DNA from: Agaricus subrufescens
Lineage: Eukaryota > Basidiomycota > Agaricomycetes > Agaricales > Agaricaceae
Reading direction: 5' to 3'
NCBI GenBank assembly: GCA_029945375.1
Contig: CM057063.1
Coordinates: 1,488,001-1,552,000, forward strand
DNA: 64,000 nucleotides
The notes below the pieces were generated by a model, which ran no database searches, was not told where the DNA came from, and worked only from the letters and a program-made list of their open reading frames with translations. The translations under genes were made by a program, and so were the position numbers. Below, piece after piece: positions 8,801-64,000 of the stretch (position 1 is the stretch's first letter; each line of letters opens with the position of its first letter).

Positions 8801-9781
8801 AGACTGACTTCGTGGCACTATGTCACTGGAACGTATGTGACATCCGAGCGGCTTAGTGAGGAGATGGGAAGGAGCCTGGCAAATCCCCTACATACAACAT
8901 TTTGTTCAAGTTATTTGTTGATAACTAGTGTCGAGGTGAAACACGAGTCAGCCTTCTCAGAACGGACGTAACAGCTCGGTTCCATCTGTGACCGACTGTG
9001 ACTGCCATGCTTGGTATATGTTGGTCCGTTGGTATCAGAGCCAAAATAAGTCATTCTTGTTTGCCTCAATTACCGTCGCCAGCGGCCGGATGAGGAGGGG
9101 GCCTGTACCAGCCCTGGGCATCGAGGGGCCCTACCCGTAGTTCAAATGCAAGTGTGGTGCTGTAAATCAGTATGAGAGGCCCAGAACGAAGAAGGTAGGC
9201 GTGTTGTTTACTAATTTTAATTCATCGATGATGTTTGAAATTTATGTCGTCCAAGCGCCTGTGGATTCCACTGATAGTAAGCTTGGGTGCTCAGGCGATC
9301 CTAGATGTGCGAAATGAGGCTACTTTGAGTAGAAGCTTTCTCTTATCTGTCACAAGTCACACGTCACACACTTCTCGCTTTGAAACGTTCTCTATAAGTC
9401 CTTTATTTCTTGACAAAAACAGTATTGAGTCGTTCATGGCATTCTATACTACCTACTTTTCCTTAAGACCATGGTTTGATCATTTCATAGCTCTCATAGA
9501 GAGTGGGAGAGTACATCGAATATATCTTCGGAAATTGCCGAGGTGGGTAGTTTGGTTGACTACTAGGATATATAGACACCTCACATCGTTTGTTTGTTCC
9601 TCTCCTCCTTTGTTCCCTCGCCCACCGCTGCTCGCTCATAGCCCCCCTCATCCCTCACTTTTATAACACCTCGACAGATTGATTTTTTTGACAAACAATC
9701 ATCTGTTCCCAGGTCGACTGCTACAGCTAATATACAAAGAATTGAACGACCAAAGTTCCAGCAGTGCCCTCCCGCTGACAT
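8801..9781. other. Intergenic, no gene seen
   Basis: A 981-bp gap between the 3' end of the F-box gene and the 3' end of the next, minus-strand gene. A 143-codon open frame on + near 9235-9666 has an unusual composition (Ser/Leu/Phe with a Pro-rich tail), no recognisable motif and no plausible splice partners. I treat it as chance. Confidence 0.5.
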
Positions 9782-34713: not shown

Positions 34714-34722
34714 GATCTAGGG
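34714..34722. repeat. Target-site duplication, left copy
   Basis: GATCTAGGG directly abuts the left terminal inverted repeat. The identical 9 bases follow the right terminal repeat at 41806-41814. Confidence 0.85.
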
Positions 34723-34738
34723 CAGGCTCCTACCCAGC
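34723..34738 (+). repeat. Left terminal inverted repeat (16 bp)
   Basis: CAGGCTCCTACCCAGC, exact reverse complement of 41790-41805. Confidence 0.9.
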
Positions 34739-34804
34739 CGACTCGACAAGTTCGCACGTTTGGCGAAACAGGGCCAAACACCGCGTAAAGAGGTGTGCTC
34801 ACTT

Positions 34805-34845
34805 GTGAGCGGCTGGCATTAAAGGTCAAACGGGCATCACCGAAG
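34805..34845 (+). repeat. Left subterminal inverted repeat block
   Basis: Two motifs, GTGAGCGGCTGGCA and CATCACCGAAG, in the same order and similar spacing as on the complementary strand at 41698-41738. Possible transposase-binding sites. Confidence 0.75.
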
Positions 34846-35039
34846 ACTTTTCCCGCGCGAGACAAAATGATAAAGATATTGTATTTTTGAATTATATAAT
34901 CATATCCAGTGTGTGACCGTAACGGAGTCCATATAAGGACTACGTCGTTTAGCCTACACTCGCGAAGCCAGTTGTTGATGCTTCCACACAATACAGGCGT
35001 AAACGATGGTTTCCAAGGTGTACAGAGCAAATTATTTTC

Positions 35040-37809
35040 ATGCTACAGCCCATGATGTCCCCTCCCCAGCCCTTTGTGTTTTACGAAGTTGTTCACACTC
35101 TTGACACTAATCATATACCTCTCGAAAACTTGATCCGTCGTTCCTTTGTTGAACCTCAAACTAAAAATTCCAAATACATCGACAACTTCGTTGAAGATCT
35201 ACCTCGCTTGCTGGGATGGTTGGCTCATCATGAACGAACTCGTGAGACTGTTATAGGATGGGTGAAGCAGGAGTATAGTGGTCTTTTAACCACACAGTTA
35301 CGTGGCCTTTCCAAACCTAAAAATGGTTTCCATATGAATGCCGGATCCATGACTGCCGAAAAAATCAAAACTTGCACAATTCAGAATATCTCACAAGGTG
35401 TACAAGCTCACGCACCTGATGTGTGGGAATTGGTTGGCAAACTTCTTGAGGCCGATCCTGCCATTACTCGTATACGAGAAAAAAAACGAGAGCGTTGAGA
35501 AAAAGAGCGGAAAAACAACAAGGGCTTGCGAAAACAGAAGAAAAGAGCTGATCTACATGAAGATGATGAAGATGAGCAGCAAATCTCGCAACTTGTGGGT
35601 GACGACAATGATGAGCCTGAAGATGTTGAGGAGCAATTGGTTAACCACCGATTGTCCATGTTATGCATTGTCAGTGTTTTTTCACCCCTGGAATTAAACC
35701 AAAGACTGATGATATTCAAATTAGAAACAAGTGACATGCATCAGCATCATGATGCAGGCCACTAATCAAAGATGTAATTCGCTACAATCTCTTATTGGCA
35801 TTTTTCTTCAATCATGCAACACCTCTGAACAAACATGAAACTTTCTTTCCCATCTCGGCATCTCAGTTTCTGTAGCCACCATCAATCGCACGATGACAAA
35901 TTTATCAAAGGAGGCCTACCAAGAGATGCGACGTCTTGGATCAACTTTATTGACATCGTATGCCTATGATAATCTGGACATAGATCTTGCCCATGCTACT
36001 CCGACAGTGGAAACTACCTCTAAAGATACATTGGTTCATTTGACAACAGCGTCAATGTTTCCACTCCATCCTATGACCACTCGAGAAGACCTTGACTACT
36101 CACATGTTCTGCGTGATTTTGCTCTCAATCCTCCTCTTCCATCGACAATCACTGAATTGATGAATCATCTTCCCCCCAAATATAACGAGCTTGATGACAA
36201 AAAAATGTCAATTCAAGATCGGTTCAACTGCTGGAAATTCATAGTCGATCTTGTTGCCTATGGTCCCCCTGCATTTGCTGTATTCCAAGATAAAGTTGGG
36301 GAACCAGAAGAAATCGAGTGTATACCACTCACGAAGACAAAACAAGTCCCTTTTTGAGCATCTAAAACTGGTCCCAATAAGCCTGCGACCAATGCTAAAG
36401 TGATGGAGGAGTTTTTCGCGCAGTCAAATGTAGGAGAGCCTTCGACTGATCATAATATTGCACAAGGCTCCCAACATCCTCCTACCAATACCGGAAACAC
36501 TGTCATCCCCGTATTTGGTGATCTCTTAACAGGACAACATATCCATAGTCTTCAAGATTCTCGGATTCAAGATGTTACACCCGGACAAAGGTTTCAATCA
36601 CAGCTCTTTTGTCCTGGGTGGTTTCATGCACGGATGGCATGTGCAGATGCCATTTGGCGTCGTCATATCATGCCCTCGGAATCTCAAGATGATCCAACAA
36701 GCCTGATGAAATACATAATGCAGATCAGGCCAATCAAAAAAAATAAAATCGCCAATAATCCCACTTTTCGTCAACTTCATGAAGTTGTACTTCATGTTGG
36801 TATTGTTCTACGACTAGATGCTTGGCACGTTGCCGTGAGCACTCGCCACCCAGAATTTTCGTCGTTGCAGGAATGGGCAGGCTCTAATCCCCGGTGGGAA
36901 GAGATCTGTGAAATTGCTGATTATCTAGCTACGAATTTCCTCGCATCACCCGAAATGTCCACATACTTTGCAAAACCATCCGATCAGGCAGACAAAGCGT
37001 TCCAGGTAACAAGAGCTTACCATAAAGATTTCCTCTTATACAAGGAAACAAACTATGCTATGAATTATGGCGACATAGGCCGGCTTGATTCGTGTCTCTC
37101 GGAGTGGATGTTTTACTTTATGGGCTGTGGAAAAGCGAAGTACGCAAATGAGGTTTATCACTATCTAGAGAACGTCTATGTGAAATTTCCAAAACCATTA
37201 GCATAAGCGTAAGACAGTAATTGTTTGATTTAACTCACCTAAATTTCTAGGGACGCCATTCGGAAAAACTCTCTTGTGAATCCTACAGGGAAAAAAGGTC
37301 ACTTCCATGGCATTGACTGGGTTATTGAGCACAATAACCTGTACATTAAAAGAGTTTTTGGTGGGCTGGGATCAAATCATACCGTGGATCGAATGATCCA
37401 AGCCTCTCCATTAATCGAAGTCTACAAGGATGTTCAACAACAATTCGAACACATGTTTCACCTCACTCATAAAACAAGCCGACATTCGCCACCAAAAATG
37501 AAACTAACGTTTGATAGACTCCAGCGTTACATGGAACAAGCCCAAGGCAATGAATTTATTCCAGGTCGATGCGTACAACACGATTTGGTCGATACTCTAG
37601 AGATAGGTATCATGAAACTGACATTGACGGTACAACAGGCCTGGCGGAATATATCTCAAGTGAGAGAAAAACAACAACAGTTAAGGTCCGGAATTGCAGT
37701 GGTTGAGCCCAAAGAGGAAATCCCAGAAGTTGAGATACCAGACGCCGATGAGGAGATGCAAGACGAGAGACTAGATGAGAGGAGCCTTTTCGTCGACAAG
37801 GATTTGTAA
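35040..37809 (+). pseudogene. DUF6589-type protein, candidate transposase (degraded)
   Basis: One long reading frame interrupted by four stops: TGA 35496-35498, TGA 35836-35838, TGA 36355-36357 and TAA 37204-37206. All segments stay in the same frame once two introns (35670-35757, and about 37209-37251) are removed, giving about 860 codons. Landmarks are a YAYDNLDIDLAH block, PVFGDLLTGQHI, a CPGWFHARMACADAIWRRHI block, YANEVYHYLENVY, NPTGKKGHFHGIDWVIEHNN and a C-terminal Glu/Asp-rich tail. This order matches DUF6589 proteins widespread in mushrooms (recognised from memory). Asp in YDN and in GDLLT look like the spaced acids of an RNase H-fold nuclease; that is inference. It is the most likely transposase of the surrounding element. 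Confidence 0.75.
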
Positions 37810-38339
37810 CCGCGCAGAGAAAACCTATGTCCGTGGTCGAAATGAGCCCCAGAATTGTTGATATGAGCTAGGCAGCGCAGCGGAAACAACAGGCTGAGAA
37901 GCGGAGACTACAGGTTGAGAAGCAATAGAGACAGCGGGTGGAGCAGTAGCAAGAGAAACGGCAGCGGAGACAGTAGCAGATGCAGAAGCAATGTTTGAGG
38001 ACGGCGAGGCAATTTCTTGAACAGTTTCTTGAGCGAGCAATTTGGAGGACGCAGCAGGTGCAGAGACGGGGTTTAACGACCCTAAGGACTCGATTAGTTC
38101 CTCTTTTACCTTCTTGGACATTCGACATGTACGTTCTGAAAAGTAGATCAGAGTTTTTTGGAAAAAACATTTCAAGGTACTCACGGTTATGTCCTTCCAT
38201 ATTACACTGCCTACAGCGTTTGACGTGTTTACGACGTCGCTGAACCGCTTGAGGGATGTAATCTAGAGTATTGGACCCAGGTGCATCAGTCCAAGCAGCA
38301 AGAGCAATGGGCGCAGCATCATAGGCGGCAGTCGGAACA

Positions 38340-38465
38340 TCCGGCATATCGCGGGCAGTGGGTGGAAGATTACGGGTGGGGTCGTGGGTGGGGAACGGAA
38401 CATTGTGGGTGGGGTCGTGGGTGGGGAGTGAATCGTCGTGGGTGGGGAGTGGACCGTCGCATAGT
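38340..38465. repeat. Minisatellite within the helicase C-terminal coding region
   Basis: A GTGGGTGGGG-type unit recurs with variation (about 38355-38460). On the minus strand it encodes repeated Pro-Thr-His-Asp (PTHD) units in the helicase tail. Confidence 0.75.
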
Positions 38466-39931
38466 CGACTGCTGGAGATGGTAGGAAGTATTGGACCTGG
38501 GAATGCAGGAAGAGGAGGATTTGCCTAGCCAGAATCAGAGTGAGTAAAAATCGACGAGGGCGAAGGGATGCTTGCCTCATGAGGTTGGTAGCCCTTGAGG
38601 AGGTCTAGGAGGGACCGTCCACAAAGGGCTATCCATTCCTCAGGCCAAGTCGTCTCCTTGCGCAGGTGAGAAATGGCCGTGAGTTTCCCATATGTCCAGC
38701 AGGCCAAGATGCAAGTTACGACCTCCTCAGTCATGAGGAGATGTGCTCCTAGTCTGCGCACCACCCCTTCCCCAAGGTGCTCCAATGCCTGGTCCTCGCG
38801 CCATTTGTAGAGGGCCTGCTCAAGGATTGTGTGGTGAGGGCTTTGAACATACAGCACTGGTATCACTGAGCGCTGAGTAGCCGGTTTCTTGGAGGGGGGA
38901 GGGCTGATGAATGTATGGAAGAAGTCGACGTCACACCGGTCGCAACAAACGTGTTGCGTGCAAGGTTTGCAACGTCGACAACCTCCAGGTGTCGTCGGGT
39001 CGCATTGCAGGTTGCCGGTATCGACTGCGAATGCATTAGACAAGTCTTTATACAAATTGAATTACTTACTTTGTTTGTTATTTGCAAAATAGAGTTGGGG
39101 CACTAGGCGTCGACAGGAAACAAAAGAGGGTAGATTAATATAATCATCGATAGCGGTCCCGGGTAGCACACCCGGGCTGTGACCTTTTTTCGTGTTTGTG
39201 AGATCATGGGAAGCTATTTCCGGTTTGGAATAGCATTCCTGACGTTCACAGGCCCATGTGGCCTGATCAGACGTTGGCAGCGTGGGTTGACAGGACGTGT
39301 CAACGTCCATCATGTTCTCACTTGGTTCCACAATTGCGCTCCTGCCTTTTGAAACTCTCGATGTGCGTGCTCGCTGTCAACGTCCTGTTGGTAAGTCATC
39401 ACTTTTCCTTTTTGATCCTGCTGACCCATTTTTTCGGCCATGTACAGTATCTTTTTTTTCGACGAGAAGTATTCCTACACCTTGTACTCCAGGAGCTCAA
39501 GCGGCGCGACCAAAGCGCTGCCATAGAGTACAAAGGTCGCAAGTGGCTTTGTACTGAACGACAATCTCTACGTCCCCAACATCCATACCCTGTGAACAAT
39601 GAGTAACTACTTTCTCTCTAATTCACGAAATCTTACCAGGCCAAATGCGTCAGTGCAGAATAATCCCCAAACCTCCCCCTTCCGAAACTGGTCGACCATC
39701 AACTCTCTGTATTCCTGGCTCATTGTTGAATGGAACCAGGCAATCCAGTGATGGTGTTCCTGGAGCAGGCGACCGTAGAAGTACTTGGTCGCCTGTTCCG
39801 CAGCTTTGATGTTGTCAAAAAATACTAAAAATTTCCTTGGCGGTTTGTCTCCATCCTTCCAGTTGTAGGAAATCAAGAACGAAAGGTCTTCAAATGAGTT
39901 TGAGGGACAAGACATCTCTCAGACCATTAAT

Positions 39932-40885
39932 GCATCAGCAAAACGGTCCGAACCATGTGGTCGTTCTAAGTTAAATAAATTATTTAGGAGCCTTACAAAT
40001 TAATAAAAATAATTTACCCCACCTCTCTTGTTACATAAATTATTTAGAAGCTTTATAAATTAATAAAAATAATTTGTTCTACCAACCTTGCTTACATAAA
40101 TTCTTTTCGTCACATTTGGATGTTTCTAAATCCTTCGAAGCCTCCCCAAAACCTTGCCTTCAAATTGAAAGGTGTTAATAACAATTTATTTCAATTCGAA
40201 GGACTAGATAATTTTAATGTCATGTTTTGAAGATAATAGAAATATCTTACATTGATTTCAAGTTGAGAAAACATTTTACTTATCATTCCCAATTTATAAA
40301 GTTGAGTGAATGATCGAAATTATAAACACGTGACCGTACCCCGCGGGCTGAACAAAATACAAAACTGTTGATCGTGACCCTCTAATCGCTTTACAACAAT
40401 TAGCGCGCGAGAATTGCGTTGAGTTGAAGTTGAATATGTCTAAGTTCATTGTTCTAACTAAGCCTTTGAGTCATAAGTGGTGTATCACGTTAAGTTCATA
40501 AGATAAATAGACCACAGTGAACCTATAACTGAAGATACTATAATAACAAATAACACAGCTTAAATTGGGTAGTAGAGTTAGAATATATAATAGTAACTGG
40601 AATTAAAATGAATTAAAATACAAAAACAGTAAAATAAATAAATAAATTATTTTGGCTATGCCAAATATAGCCTAAAATGTTTTTATCTCATTGCAAGGGC
40701 TCAAAATCTTTTCGGCTTCCTTGCAAGGGTTCAAAATCTTTTCGGCTCCCTTGCAAACTTTTGTAACCTTTGAACTTCATGTGTGTCTTGGAATAATTCC
40801 CAAACGAAGTCATCTTGAAAATTATAATGGCACCTTGGTTGGCGTACCGGGGCCTTTGAAGGTTTTTTTGGTTTTGCTGATGTGC
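39932..40885. mobile_element. AT-rich nested insertion (MITE-like) inside the helicase pseudogene
   Basis: About 0.95 kb, far richer in A+T than its surroundings, with no coding frame. Its ends are inverted: GCATCAGCAAAACGG at the left and GGTTTTGCTGATGTGC at the right. Removing it rejoins the helicase frame from NDRPDI straight into MV and the SCPSNSFEDL block, which is the strongest evidence that it is an insertion. Internal direct repeats lie at about 39974-40014 / 40034-40075 and 40691-40720 / 40721-40750. A short TA-type target duplication is possible but not certain. Confidence 0.65.
40691..40750. repeat. Two tandem 30-bp repeats inside the nested element
   Basis: The unit starting TTGCAAGGG and ending TTTTCGGCTYCC occurs twice head-to-tail with two differences; a third partial start (TTGCAAACTTTT) follows. 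Confidence 0.85.
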
Positions 40886-41697
40886 TATGTCCGGCCGGTC
40901 GTTTGAACAGAGAAGCTGAGTTGTATTCTCTGGGCTCATGTGCAACAGGCGGCGAATTTCTGTCATCAGAGGGATTGGGAGGGTAGCGGAGGCGACGTAG
41001 AAGGGAATGGGATCCGAGATGAGGTAACGTATGATTCCAACTGCTAAATAATGTTTCCGAAATTGACCCCACTGGCTGATACAGTGGCCTTCGTCGAAAA
41101 CAAACCCCAAGATATGACGGGTAAAAGAGGAATCCTTCCAGAGTGCGCGAAACTCATCAGAGATCATGAGGATCTCTGGATTTGTTACGACGACATCGTA
41201 CCTCCCCTGAGCAATTTCCTATTTGGCTTGGTCAGAACTATCACTTTCTTGCCTCTAGAGGACGTACCATAAATGACTTTGCGGTTGCATTCTCAGCGGC
41301 GAGAGCAATAGCGGAGATACCAACTTCGGTAAGTATCTCAACATTCTGTTTTGCTAACACGTTCAAGGGACTGATGACGAATAAGATTTTTTTCATCTTG
41401 TCTTCCTGGGCCATCAAGAGAGGTATCCAGAAAGACAGTGTCTTCCCAGCTCCTGTCGGCGCACAGCCAATGACATCACGACCGGCATAGAAGGCCTTGG
41501 CGGCCTCGATTTGATACCAGCAGGGGCGTTTAGTAAAACGCTGATGTACAAGCTCTGTTATGCGCCCGGTTGTCCAGGGGGAAGATGCGGAATCGCGTGG
41601 CGGTGTTGCTGCTGACATGGCGTGGGCGTGACAGAATATATTCAATCATTAATTAAACTCGATATGTTTTCCAAGTTCGATCTACATCCGAATTAGG

Positions 41698-41738
41698 CTT
41701 CGGTGATGGCCGAAAGATCTTTGTTGCCAGCCGCTCAC
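41698..41738 (-). repeat. Right subterminal inverted repeat block
   Basis: Complement carries GTGAGCGGCTGGCA and CATCACCGAAG, mirroring 34805-34845. Confidence 0.75.
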
Positions 41739-41789
41739 TGCGTGAGCCATCCCCTTACTTCTGACTAAGCTCACGTGGGCAGTGAGCGA

Positions 41790-41805
41790 GCTGGGTAGGA
41801 GCCTG
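41790..41805 (-). repeat. Right terminal inverted repeat (16 bp)
   Basis: GCTGGGTAGGAGCCTG, exact reverse complement of 34723-34738. Confidence 0.9.
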
Positions 41806-41814
41806 GATCTAGGG
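41806..41814. repeat. Target-site duplication, right copy
   Basis: GATCTAGGG, identical to 34714-34722. Confidence 0.85.
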
Positions 41815-58871: not shown

Positions 58872-61274
58872 ATGACTCCTAAGAGGAGAAGGGACAAGTT
58901 CAAGGAATGGCTATCGGGCCTCTTCACTCCGAAAGACGAGATCAGGAACGATGGTATGTGTTTAGCTCGACAACATCGCAGACTGATACTCAGAAAGTCG
59001 TCTATCCATAGGTCCCGAACGTCAAGCTGGATCTGGGAGCTTTTTCAGTCATTCATAAAGCTTTGCTATACACAATTCCCAGATGGCGTCTGTACAGGGA
59101 AACCAATACACATACGTTCAAGGGGACAGAAACGTTGTGCCACACAGTGAGTGGTACCGCTTTCTAATTCCTGCTGCCTTAGCTCATTTTGTCAAGTCAT
59201 GGGATTAATCTCGCAGCATATCATTCAGGGTGCTGCCCACGATTCCTCTGCTCGTACTCCACCTCCACGCTGTCATCCCAACACCCGTGTCAAGTTAATT
59301 GCTCGTATCACTGCTTGGTTCGACGATCAAGGCACACAAGAACTTCTTTTATGGATAACTGGCCCAGCTGGCGTCGGGAAATCAGCGGTTGTCCAGACAT
59401 TTGCAGAGTACCTTGCCAATTGCAAATCCCTCGGAGCGTCCATATTCATTTCTCGCCCAAATAAACGCAATAACCCGCATGGCATCTTCATCACTATTGC
59501 TTATCAGTTGGCTACTAGGATCGAGGCATACCGCAACTTTGTTGTTGAGCGACTCAGCCTTGATCCAGAGTTGTTACGCGGTGATATGCAAGCTCAATTC
59601 ACAGCCTTTATAGTTGAGCCATTCGTGGTGAAGAAAATTGAAGAAAATGGTAAACGATGGGGCATACTATTAGATGGGCTCGATGAACTCGAAGGCGAAG
59701 ATGCGCAATGCAGCATCATCCAACTCATCGGCAGCTTTGCCCGTGATCATCCCGATGTTCCCCTTCTCTGGATTATAGCCAGTCGTCCTGAATCACGCAT
59801 ATCCAACACATTCGATGACCCTGAAGTCCATCCCGGTTGCCGTAAAGAGTACATTCCAATCGACTCTACCGAAGCATGCGAGGATGTCGATCGCTTTTTC
59901 CGATCAAGTTTCAAGACGATCCAGAAGGATTATCGGCATTCTGTTCCCAGCGAATGGCCTAGCGACACAGAATTTCTGAAACTCACTGCTGCCGCCTCGG
60001 GCCTTTTCATCTATGCCCAAGTAGTGGTACAATTTATCAGAGATCCGAATCACGCCGATCCCGCCGCCCGACTTGAGAGCCTCGTATCTGTCATTGAACG
60101 CTCCACTACCGTTCCAACAGAAGACAACCCTTTTGTCCATTTGGATGCGCTCTACCATGAAATCCTTTCTTCGATTCCGTCTGCGAAGTGGCCAACAACC
60201 AAACAACTATTTGGCTTCGCAATTCATCAGAGCGAAAGGGGGACTAACTGTCATGATATTCAGCGATGTTTCCGAACCTTCAGAGGAATGTCCATTCTCT
60301 TCGGCATCAACCGACATACCATCCACGTGTGTTTAACCAAATGCGTGTCAATCCTCAAGATACCGGACTGGAAAGTAGCTCATAAGGAGGGATTGACGTT
60401 CCTGCATGCCTCGTTTGCTGATTACCTGAAAGACCCCAGAAGATCTCGAGATTTCTATGTTGGCAGTCGCAGGGATACGGCGGATGGTGCTGTGTTGAGA
60501 CTTCTAGAGATCTGGAACGAGTGCATTGATGACAATATTACTCCAGGTATGCGTGATCTTTTGTCTCCGTAACGTATTCGACTTATGTCTGTTTTAGCTT
60601 CGGTTGAATCCGCGTGGCACCAATATTGCTCAAAATTAGATGACAAGATACCGTCAAGAGCTGTTGCAAAATTCTGTACAACACTCTTTCATGACGTTGT
60701 TTATTGTTTAAGACGGGTAGTATATGGGAATTTGGATAGGCCAGTACAGTCTCCCATATATATGCAGCTACGCAAGGTCCACATTGCCAAGTTATGTTAC
60801 CATTTCAATTCGACGGACTTGCTATGGTTTGTACGGTATCTGGTGAATGATTTCTCAGGTTCTCTGCTTCAATTTTGAAGTTTACTATTCTCACAGGACA
60901 TCAAGGCAAAGTCCAATGGTATAGGACTGTACCGAGAAACACAGCTCCGCGACCTCGAGTTCAAACATCTTGACTTGAAGGAGATGAACCCAGTCAATGT
61001 CCGTAATGGGCATAAGGGCAAGTTTTTCAAGGAAGGTTGGAGACTAAATCGGGTGAGTGTATGCATCGCGCCAAGGTTTGAGCTTTCTGAATATTTTTTA
61101 CAGCCACATTCAAATACCGCATTAAATGCATTTGTATCCAAGCTAGAGTATCTTCGGGAACACTCACCGAATACTAAGGTCATCATTCTCGGAGGTGTAA
61201 GTCAGTGGCGGGTCGCAGTCATTCAGTATATTGAGAATCAGACCGTATGTTATGTGGTTCCTTACCCCGAGTAA
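58872..61274 (+). pseudogene. NACHT-domain NLR-like NTPase, copy 1 (N-terminal stop)
   Basis: STAND-type NTPase. Exon 1 (58872-58953) encodes a basic start (MTPKRRRDKFKEWLSGLFTP). Exon 2 (from 59012) matches copy 2 but contains TAA at 59056-59058 where copy 2 has CAA, so full translation is blocked unless it restarts at ATG 59083 (MASVQGNQYTYVQGDRNVV). From 59201 the large exon is open: WITGPAGVGKSAVVQ (Walker A), WGILLDGLDELEG (Walker B), LLWIIASRPESRIS (sensor-like), then the helical NACHT-associated region. After three further introns the C-terminal exons run to CYVVPYPE and stop at 61274. No WD40, ankyrin or TPR repeats follow. Possibly a pseudogene, or a shorter protein from the internal start. 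Confidence 0.7.
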
Positions 61275-61974: not shown

Positions 61975-64000
61975 ATGGCCCCTAGGAGGAAGAGGGTCAT
62001 ATTCAAGCAGTGGCTATCGGGCCTCTTCTCCCTCAAAAGGGATCCTCGGAATGATGGTCTGTGCTTAGTTCGATAGTATCACAGGTCACTACTCAGAAGG
62101 TTGTCTACGCATAGGTCACCAATATCAAGCTGGGTCTCGAGGCTTTTTTGGACATGCACAAAGCTTTGCTATACACAATCCCCACATGACATCTGTACAG
62201 GGAAGCCAATACACTTATCATATCCAAGGGGACCAGAACGTTGTGCCACATAGTGGGTGGTACCGCTTTCCAGCTCCTGCTGCCTGTACTCATTTTGTGT
62301 TTGTCAAGTCATGGGATTAATCTCGCAGCATATCATTCAGGGCGCTGCCCACGATTCCTCTGCTCGTACTCCACCTCCACGCTGTCATCCCAACACCCGT
62401 GTCAAGCTAATTGCTCGTATCACTGCTTGGTTCGACGATCAAGACACACAAGAACTTCTTTCATGGATAACTGGCCCAGCTGGCGTCGGGAAATCAGCGG
62501 TTGTCCAGACATTTGCAGAGTATCTTGCCAACTGCAAATCCCTTGGAGCGTCCGTATTCATTTCTCGTCCAAATAAACGCAATAACCCGCATGGTGTCTT
62601 CATCACTATTGCTTATCAGTTGGCTACTAGGATCGAGGCATACCGCAACTTTATTGTTGAGCGACTCAGCCTTGATCCAGAGTTGTTACGCGGTGATATG
62701 CAAGCTCAATTCACAGCCTTTATAGTTGAGCCGTTCGTGGTGAAGAAAATTGAAGAAAATGGTAAACGATGGGGCATACTATTAGATGGGCTTGATGAAC
62801 TCGAAGGCGAAGATGCGCAATGCAGCATCATACAACTCATCGGCAGCTTTGCCCGTGATCATCCCGATGTTCCCCTTCTCTGGATTATAGCCAGTCGTCC
62901 TGAATCACGCATATCCAACACATTCGATGACCCTGAAATCTACCGCAGCTGCCGGAAAGAATACATTCCAATCGACTCTACCGAAGCATGCGAGGATGTC
63001 GATCGCTTTTTCCGATCAAGTTTCAAGACAATTCAGAAGGATTATCGGTACTCTGTTCCCAATGAATGGCCTAACGACACAGAATTTCTGAAACTCACTG
63101 CTGCCGCCTCGGGCCTTTTTATCTATGCCCAAGTAGTGGTCCAGTTCATCAGAGATCCGAATCACGCCGACCCAGCCGCCCGACTTGAGACCCTCATATC
63201 TGTTATTGAGCGTTCCACTACCATTTCAACAGAAGACAACCCTTTTGTCCATTTGGATGCGCTCTACCATGAGATCCTTTCTTCGATTCCGTCGGCGAAG
63301 TGGCCAATAACCAAACAACTATTTGGCTTTGCAATTCACCAGGGCGACAATGGGACCAACCTTCGTGATATTCAAAGATGTTTTGGTACCCTCAGAGGAA
63401 TGTCCATTCTCTTCAGCATCAACCGACATACTATGCACGTGTGTCTAACCAAGTGCATATCGATCCTCAAAATACCAGATTGGAAAGTGGCGCATAAGGA
63501 GGGGTTGTCATTCTTTCATGCCTCGTTTGCTGACTACCTGAAGGACCCCAGTAGATCTCAAGATTTTTATGTTGGTGGCACCGAGGATATTGAGGATGGT
63601 GCGGTGTTGAGACTTCTAGAGATTTGGAATGAGTGCAGTGGGGATGATGTTGCCACAGGTTCGTGCGGCCTTTTATCTCCATGACGTATCCTAGTTTAAT
63701 AGTTGTTTCAGCTTCAGTCGAATCTGCGTGGCACCAATATTGCTCAAAATGGGATGACAAGATACCGTCAAGGGCTCTTGCAAAATTTCACGCGACACTC
63801 TTCCGTGACACTGTTTACTGTCTAAGACGGATGATACACAAGAACTTGGAAAGGCCGGTCCAGTCTCCCATATATGTGCAGCTACGCAGGGCCCACATTG
63901 CCAAGTTGTGCTACTACTTCGATCCTGCGGACTTGCTATGGTTTGTACTGAACCTGGTAAATGTCTCTCGGGTTCAATTCTAATGATTCTAATTCTGAAC
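61975..64000 (+). CDS. NACHT-domain NLR-like NTPase, copy 2 (3' end missing)
   Basis: Near-identical paralogue of the preceding gene, displaced by about 3.11 kb. Exon 1 (61975-62056) encodes MAPRRKRVIFKQWLSGLFSL. Exon 2 (from 62115) is open here: GFFGHAQSFAIHNPHMTSVQ, then YTYHIQGDQNVVPH. After a 50-odd bp intron (acceptor TTTGTCAAG at 62308) the long exon carries WITGPAGVGKSAVVQ (Walker A), WGILLDGLDELEG (Walker B), WIIASRPESRIS and the helical region ending EIWNECSGDD. Next exon: ASVESAWHQYCSKWDDKI to LLWFVLNL. The window ends inside the following intron, so the last exons are absent. Expected role: heterokaryon incompatibility-like or immune-type sensor, by family. Confidence 0.85.

What the first reader, a model, noticed from the sequence alone, without database searches (positions are those of the whole stretch)
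34723..41805. Complete two-gene DNA transposon pairing a DUF6589 protein with a RecQ-like helicase
Seen: perfect 16-bp terminal inverted repeats, matching subterminal inverted motifs and a 9-bp target duplication enclose exactly two convergent genes whose stops are 15 bp apart. Known: DUF6589 proteins are abundant and unexplained in mushrooms, and RecQ-like helicases with CCHC knuckles are expanded in fungal subtelomeres. Inference: DUF6589 is the transposase and the helicase a co-mobilised accessory factor, so the two unexplained expansions may share one mobile-element cause. I know of no description of this pairing.
Basis: partly seen in the sequence, partly recalled or inferred. Interest (0 to 1): 0.87.

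Follow-up and report, generated by a model that had tools for sequence, protein, structure and literature searches.

The report
Mushroom jumping gene with helicase partner
This is a mobile DNA element that carries a likely cutting enzyme (so far listed only as a domain of unknown function, DUF6589) together with a DNA-unwinding enzyme; it fits an already described kind of transposon, AcademH, and gives a likely function to a large family of unexplained mushroom proteins.

Summary
Window 34723-41805 has exact 16-bp inverted ends and a 9-bp target duplication around two convergent genes, DUF6589 and a RecQ-like helicase. This copy is decayed (in-frame stops; a 954-bp insert in the helicase).

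The genome holds many relatives: 196 matches to the end sequence (reversed control 0). Of 32 end-to-end units, 27 have exact 9-bp and one a 10-bp duplication. Of 24 DUF6589 loci, 21 carry the helicase core, always convergent. Near-identical 6,079-bp copies sit at three unrelated places, one of which also exists empty. The two genes co-diverge (Mantel r 0.905, 18 copies) and, in the two usable pairs, are equally constrained. DUF6589 is predicted to have an RNase-H transposase fold.

Transposase plus helicase with 9-10-bp duplications is what later papers report for AcademH (Kojima 2020, not held here), so the pairing is not new. I found no paper that names DUF6589 as the transposase; homology to Academ could not be tested. 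The tie to subtelomeric RecQ expansion is not supported in this genome.

The parts
34714..34722 (.). left target-site duplication GATCTAGGG
34723..34738 (+). left terminal inverted repeat, 16 bp
34811..34843 (+). left subterminal motif GGCTGGC...CATCACCGA
34953..37809 (+). DUF6589 (putative transposase) gene, decayed; open pieces 34953-35498, 35839-36357, 36358-37206, 37243-37809; PF20231 in the last two. Start codon not determined
36355..36357 (+). in-frame TGA where 18 of the other 20 loci printed have a sense codon (L011 and L016 also TGA)
37825..41618 (-). RecQ-like helicase gene, decayed; open pieces 41241-41645, 40688-41218, 39607-39918, 39062-39376, 38525-39061, 37868-38524, 37825-38262; gene ends inferred
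   Evidence: DEAD E 1.1e-14 and 1.3e-5 (the second just under the cut-off), Helicase_C E 1.1e-7
38184..38217 (-). CCHC-like knuckle CRQCNMEGHN near the helicase C-terminus
   Evidence: read; zf-CCHC_2 E 0.0011 (under the cut-off) in one of three relatives scanned, P0180
39931..40884 (.). 954-bp A+T-rich nested insert that interrupts the helicase; imperfect inverted ends, no direct repeat of 6 or more at the borders
   Evidence: absent from copy L011
41700..41732 (-). right subterminal motif GGCTGGC...CATCACCGA
41790..41805 (-). right terminal inverted repeat, 16 bp
41806..41814 (.). right target-site duplication GATCTAGGG

Best explanation
A decayed copy, autonomous in type, of a cut-and-paste DNA transposon, most likely of the AcademH lineage of the Academ superfamily. 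DUF6589 is the DDE-type, RNase-H-fold transposase. It would recognise the 16-bp ends and the subterminal GGCTGGC/ATCAC motif, excise the element, and join it to target DNA with a 9-bp stagger that repair turns into the 9-bp duplication. The RecQ-like helicase is a second, selected transposition gene that probably opens or remodels DNA at the ends or target, or processes the gap. Shown here: insertion as one unit, the 9-bp duplication, the gene pair, its co-divergence and constraint, the predicted fold. Inferred: which acidic residues cut, the binding motif, the helicase's step, cut-and-paste rather than copying, and the name AcademH.
Against: The Academ transposase itself could not be compared: no reference sequence was at hand and Kojima 2020 is not held. 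No Foldseek match reaches E 0.001. AcademH is described as low-copy in fungi, while here there are 24 DUF6589 loci. One of the three near-identical copies, L034, has no target duplication. Four of 27 helicase loci have no DUF6589 match of their own, and three of 24 DUF6589 loci lack the helicase core in the fetched stretch. Two pairs of copies are mosaics, so the two genes are not strictly inherited as one block. The two dN/dS pairs include decayed copies.
Confidence: 0.85

Rival explanations
1. A DDE superfamily distinct from Academ that shares with AcademH only the helicase partner and the 9-bp duplication.
For: Academ homology was not testable here. KolobokH, of a different superfamily, is also named as a source of such helicases (PMC10799480 passage), so a helicase is no proof of kinship. 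AcademH is called low-copy there.
Against: 9- and 10-bp duplications plus a helicase in a fungus are together what later papers report for AcademH.
Confidence: 0.1
2. A Mutator-like (MULE) or KDZ/Zisupton element with a captured helicase.
For: MULEs often make 9-bp duplications (recalled); KDZ elements are abundant in at least one mushroom genome (PMC8290104 passage).
Against: Three DUF6589 proteins scanned at E up to 5 gave no MULE, KDZ or hAT family, though HMMER's filters drop most very weak matches. Zisupton makes 8-bp duplications (PMC12730594 passage) against exact 9 bp here in 27 of 32 units.
Confidence: 0.03
3. The helicase is a passenger and plays no part in transposition.
For: 12 of 14 short units (709-1,429 bp) have exact 9-bp duplications, so ends without the helicase gene move, presumably by proteins supplied from elsewhere; one DUF6589 copy (L017) has lost most of the helicase.
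Against: 21 of 24 loci keep it in the same place and orientation; co-divergence with DUF6589; similar constraint in two pairs; the pair recurs in other Agaricomycetes.
Confidence: 0.07

Closest known systems
AcademH lineage of Academ DNA transposons (Kojima 2020, Mob DNA 11:15; seen here only through passages of later papers)
   Same: Helicase-encoding DNA transposon; 9- or 10-bp target duplications; reported from Basidiomycota among other fungi.
   Different: The transposase is identified here with Pfam DUF6589, a name found in no paper of the library (0 papers). Homology to the Academ transposase was not testable. AcademH is called low-copy in fungi; here there are 24 DUF6589 loci.
KolobokH transposons
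   Same: Named beside AcademH as a source of DEAD/Helicase_C helicases (PMC10799480 passage).
   Different: Kolobok targets TTAA (recalled); here 9-bp duplications of varied sequence.
hAT (Hermes) and P element transposases
   Different: 10-12% identity in the alignments shown; no hAT family match; 9-bp, not 8-bp, duplications; a helicase partner.
Telomere-linked RecQ helicases (TLH) of fungi
   Same: RecQ-type helicase.
   Different: Element helicases lie in dispersed transposons; the RecQ genes near contig ends of this genome form a separate set.

Membership tests
AcademH | 9- or 10-bp target-site duplications | tested here: met
   27 of 32 units 9 bp, 1 of 32 10 bp, 1 of 32 8 bp, 3 of 32 none exact; trait taken from PMC10045372
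AcademH | encodes a superfamily-II helicase beside the transposase | tested here: met
   21 of 24 DUF6589 loci carry the helicase core; DEAD and Helicase_C; nearest solved structures by sequence WRN, E 2.2e-22, and other RecQ-family helicases
AcademH | transposase homologous to the Academ transposase | not testable with these tools
   no Academ reference sequence or profile; Kojima 2020 not held
AcademH | terminal inverted repeats | tested here: met
   16 bp, 196 matches in the genome with at most one mismatch
DDE/RNase-H transposases | RNase-H-like core | tested here: met
DDE/RNase-H transposases | three clustered catalytic acidic residues | tested here: inconclusive
   D228 lies in the first strand, D406 just after the strand 401-405, D588 just before a late helix, all conserved; distances were not measured
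KDZ/Zisupton | 8-bp target-site duplications | tested here: not met
   exact 9 bp in 27 of 32 units, 8 bp in one; 8 bp for Zisupton from PMC12730594
MULE | MULE transposase domain | tested here: not met
   no MULE family among Pfam matches at E up to 5 for three DUF6589 proteins
hAT | hAT family sequence domain and 8-bp duplications | tested here: not met
   no hAT family at E up to 5 in three DUF6589 proteins; 9-bp duplications; only the fold is similar
KolobokH | TTAA target | tested here: not met
   duplications are 9 bp and differ between sites; the TTAA trait is recalled
Telomere-linked helicases | position next to chromosome ends | tested here: not met
   23 of 27 element-helicase loci lie over 100 kb from a contig end; four do not: C5:3520471 (26 kb), C31:56708 (50 kb), C25:62081 (62 kb), C9:2494721 (84 kb). 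Contig ends need not be telomeres

The most novel reading that the evidence does not exclude
DUF6589 as a whole is the transposase of a helicase-dependent class of cut-and-paste transposons. The RecQ-like helicase is required for the reaction and determines the wide 9-10-bp stagger, a mechanism that I know of for no other eukaryotic DDE transposon. The large sets of 'DUF6589' and many 'RecQ helicase' genes annotated in Agaricomycetes are then transposon genes rather than host genes.
Probability: 0.35. Interest if true: 0.65.

Novelty: new member of a known kind. Interest (0 to 1): 0.47.

Why it matters
It turns a Pfam family of unknown function that is widespread in mushrooms into a testable transposase, and flags many fungal 'RecQ helicase' annotations as probable transposon genes, which bears on gene counts and on surveys of domain co-option. 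It also offers a system (near-identical copies, known ends, a filled and an empty site) for asking what a helicase does in cut-and-paste transposition. The transposon type itself is already in print.

Tried and rejected
Nested-insertion reading of the helicase: rejected by 21 of 24 loci with the same layout. A conserved recoded stop at 36355-36357: rejected; 18 of the other 20 loci printed have a sense codon there and two (L011, L016) have TGA. Empty site for the window copy: its 300-bp left flank is unique, as are those of L033 and L034. Viral contigs with the DUF6589 alignment: 32 pattern matches, no relative. Subtelomeric link: not supported. Weak Pfam matches of one DUF6589 protein, P0005 (Hop2 winged helix E 0.0065, Csx1 E 0.19, both under the cut-off): not used. 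Strict co-inheritance: contradicted in part by two mosaic pairs, L013/L015 and L009/L010. Searches for prior description: DUF6589 (0 papers), AcademH, Academ, RecQ/inverted-repeat transposons, telomere-linked helicases. Of the papers cited I saw only the passages that the find calls returned.
Full report
What is in the window. The element spans 34723-41805 (7,083 bp) with exact 16-bp inverted ends and the 9-bp direct repeat GATCTAGGG outside them. It is the only exact 16-bp inverted pair 200 bp to 12 kb apart in the window; 20 single-base shuffles gave 7 such pairs in all and none with a flanking repeat. Both ends of this copy carry GGCTGGC 74-89 bases in, then [CA]ATCACYGA 24 bases further. 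Over 18 units (36 ends) GGCTGGC is found in 29 and [CA]ATCACYGA in 20. Inside are a DUF6589 gene on + (PF20231 E 4.7e-54 and 5.1e-23) and a helicase on - (DEAD, Helicase_C). Both are broken: in-frame TGA codons and a 954-bp A+T-rich insert in the helicase.

The family in the genome. The window lies in a 44.65-Mb, 44-contig genome. The end sequence occurs 100 times forward and 96 reverse with at most one mismatch; the pattern read backwards occurs 0 times. I tabulated 32 units with both ends in fetched loci: 27 exact 9-bp duplications, one 10-bp (L037), one 8-bp (L018), three without (L002, L034, L047). Three pairs of rows (L016/L017, L035/L036, L042/L044) repeat the same duplication, so the independent number is lower. 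Copies lacking a recognisable second end in the fetched stretch were left out. Fourteen of the 32 are short units of 709-1,429 bp, 12 of them with exact 9-bp duplications. They look like non-autonomous relatives; those in L041-L048 gave no match to either gene.

The pair is the rule. PF20231 finds 42 matches that I group into 24 loci; the tool calls its counts lower bounds. In 21 of 24 the helicase core lies in the same stretch, always convergent. The other three: L017 keeps only a remnant; L032 has helicase 3' exons beside it and core matches about 10 kb off; at C13 the helicase is about 8 kb away. In the other direction the helicase query gives 33 matches that I group into 27 loci; four (C6:1320121, C3:302375, C5:3127042, C11:595795) have no DUF6589 match of their own.

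Mobility as one unit. L034 and L035 are each 99.98% identical to L033 over 6,079-6,081 bp, end to end, with no match between flanks, and the compared stretches of both genes hold no stop. L033 and L035 have 9-bp duplications; L034 has none. The 300-bp flank of L035 also occurs, identical, on C2 and C6. C2 holds the element (L036). On C6 the two flanks meet at a single GACAAAAAC, 280 bp of joined flank being identical, and the distance to a second marker is shorter by 6,088 bp, the element plus one duplication. That is a filled and an empty version of one site. The identical blocks may be haplotypes, segmental copies or assembly duplicates. No empty site was found for the window copy, L033 or L034.

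Co-evolution and selection. Among 18 copies that differ by over 3% in DUF6589 (identity 41-96% in DUF6589, 46-100% in the helicase) the distance matrices correlate at r 0.905, with 0 of 5,000 permutations as high. Of 13 pairs tested for dN/dS, two had usable dS in both genes: W/L011 0.182 and 0.175; L014/L018 0.129 and 0.125. A third, L030/L019, with few changes, gave 0.373 and 0.457. The rest were saturated in at least one gene or mosaic. W, L011, L018 and L030 carry stops, so these ratios mix past selection with decay. In L013/L015 and L009/L010 most of the helicase is about 100% identical while the DUF6589 part is 83-98%, so parts are sometimes exchanged.

Other species. DUF6589 relatives are spread through Agaricomycetes (179 and 437 proteins, 120 listed each time; that the named species are Agaricomycetes is recalled). 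The helicase search gave 54 proteins. I take the first 30 rows (P0179-P0208) as element-like and left out the other 24, which look like generic helicases. Three have consecutive gene numbers (Leucocoprinus NP233_g12305/g12306, Phlebia NM688_g272/g273, Pleurotus djamor ONZ45_g7144/g7145) and one differs by two (Rhodofomes EVJ58_g6058/g6060). The DUF6589 lists are cut off, so the 16 unmatched helicases say little.

Mechanism. Best reading: DUF6589 pairs the ends, cuts, and inserts with a 9-bp stagger; the helicase assists by opening or remodelling DNA. A passage of PMC10045372 suggests that the 9-10-bp against 3-4-bp duplications of the two Academ lineages relate to the helicase or nuclease they encode. 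This step is untested.

What is known. Passages of PMC10045372 and PMC10799480 describe AcademH as an Academ lineage with a helicase and 9- or 10-bp duplications, low-copy in Basidiomycota, Ascomycota and Mucoromycota; the cited title adds animals. A passage of PMC8290104 reports widespread putative non-autonomous Academ elements in a mushroom genome, and one of PMC10294476 gives a mean of 5,565 bp for curated bivalve Academ elements. I read no part of Kojima 2020 (not held). No paper in the library contains 'DUF6589'. So the element type is known. The equation DUF6589 = AcademH transposase is likely but not proven by homology here, and I found no paper that states it.

Subtelomeric claim. The RecQ family profile finds long open frames within 100 kb of contig ends (C1:12176, C1:86997, C10:12020, C3:4152992, C3:4164842, C4:3602032; 30 of 91 candidates were scored) that are not among the element helicase matches and have no DUF6589 match near them. 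Of the 27 element-helicase loci four also lie within 100 kb of a contig end (C5, C9 and two short contigs, C25 and C31). In this genome the two sets look separate.

Noticed in passing
L013 vs L015, L009 vs L010: Mosaic copies: most of the helicase is about 100% identical while the DUF6589 part is 83-98%, switching at about 4.25-4.5 kb, inside the 3' part of the helicase gene. Suggests recombination or gene conversion between copies.
   Followed up: partly
window 39931-40884: 954-bp, 33% G+C insert in the helicase with imperfect inverted ends (CATCAGCAAAAC) and no direct repeat of 6 or more at the borders; possibly a separate small transposon.
   Followed up: partly
window 8863-8878 (-): A lone end-like sequence (2 mismatches) just after a 665-codon frame with an F-box-like match; no partner end with at most 5 mismatches upstream in the window.
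   Followed up: partly
C1:1540540, C2:699415, C6:2266628 (L035, L036, L049): A flank repeated at 100% identity on three contigs, with the element on two and empty on one; may be haplotypes or assembly duplicates.
   Followed up: partly
C1:12176, C1:86997, C10:12020, C3:4152992, C3:4164842, C4:3602032: RecQ-family open frames of 710-736 codons within 100 kb of contig ends, perhaps telomere-linked helicases.
   Followed up: no
L022, L023, L024: Element left ends followed by only a weakly similar DUF6589 N-terminal piece (33% identity) and, in L022/L023, dense internal repeats; perhaps a diverged or non-autonomous subfamily.
   Followed up: no
L013 202-7357 and 301-6438: A full-length copy inserted inside a shorter related copy, each with its own 9-bp duplication.
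   Followed up: partly
window 59151-60572 and 62254-63684: Two neighbouring frames with NACHT/NPHP3_N ATPase matches, perhaps fungal NLR-like genes.
   Followed up: no
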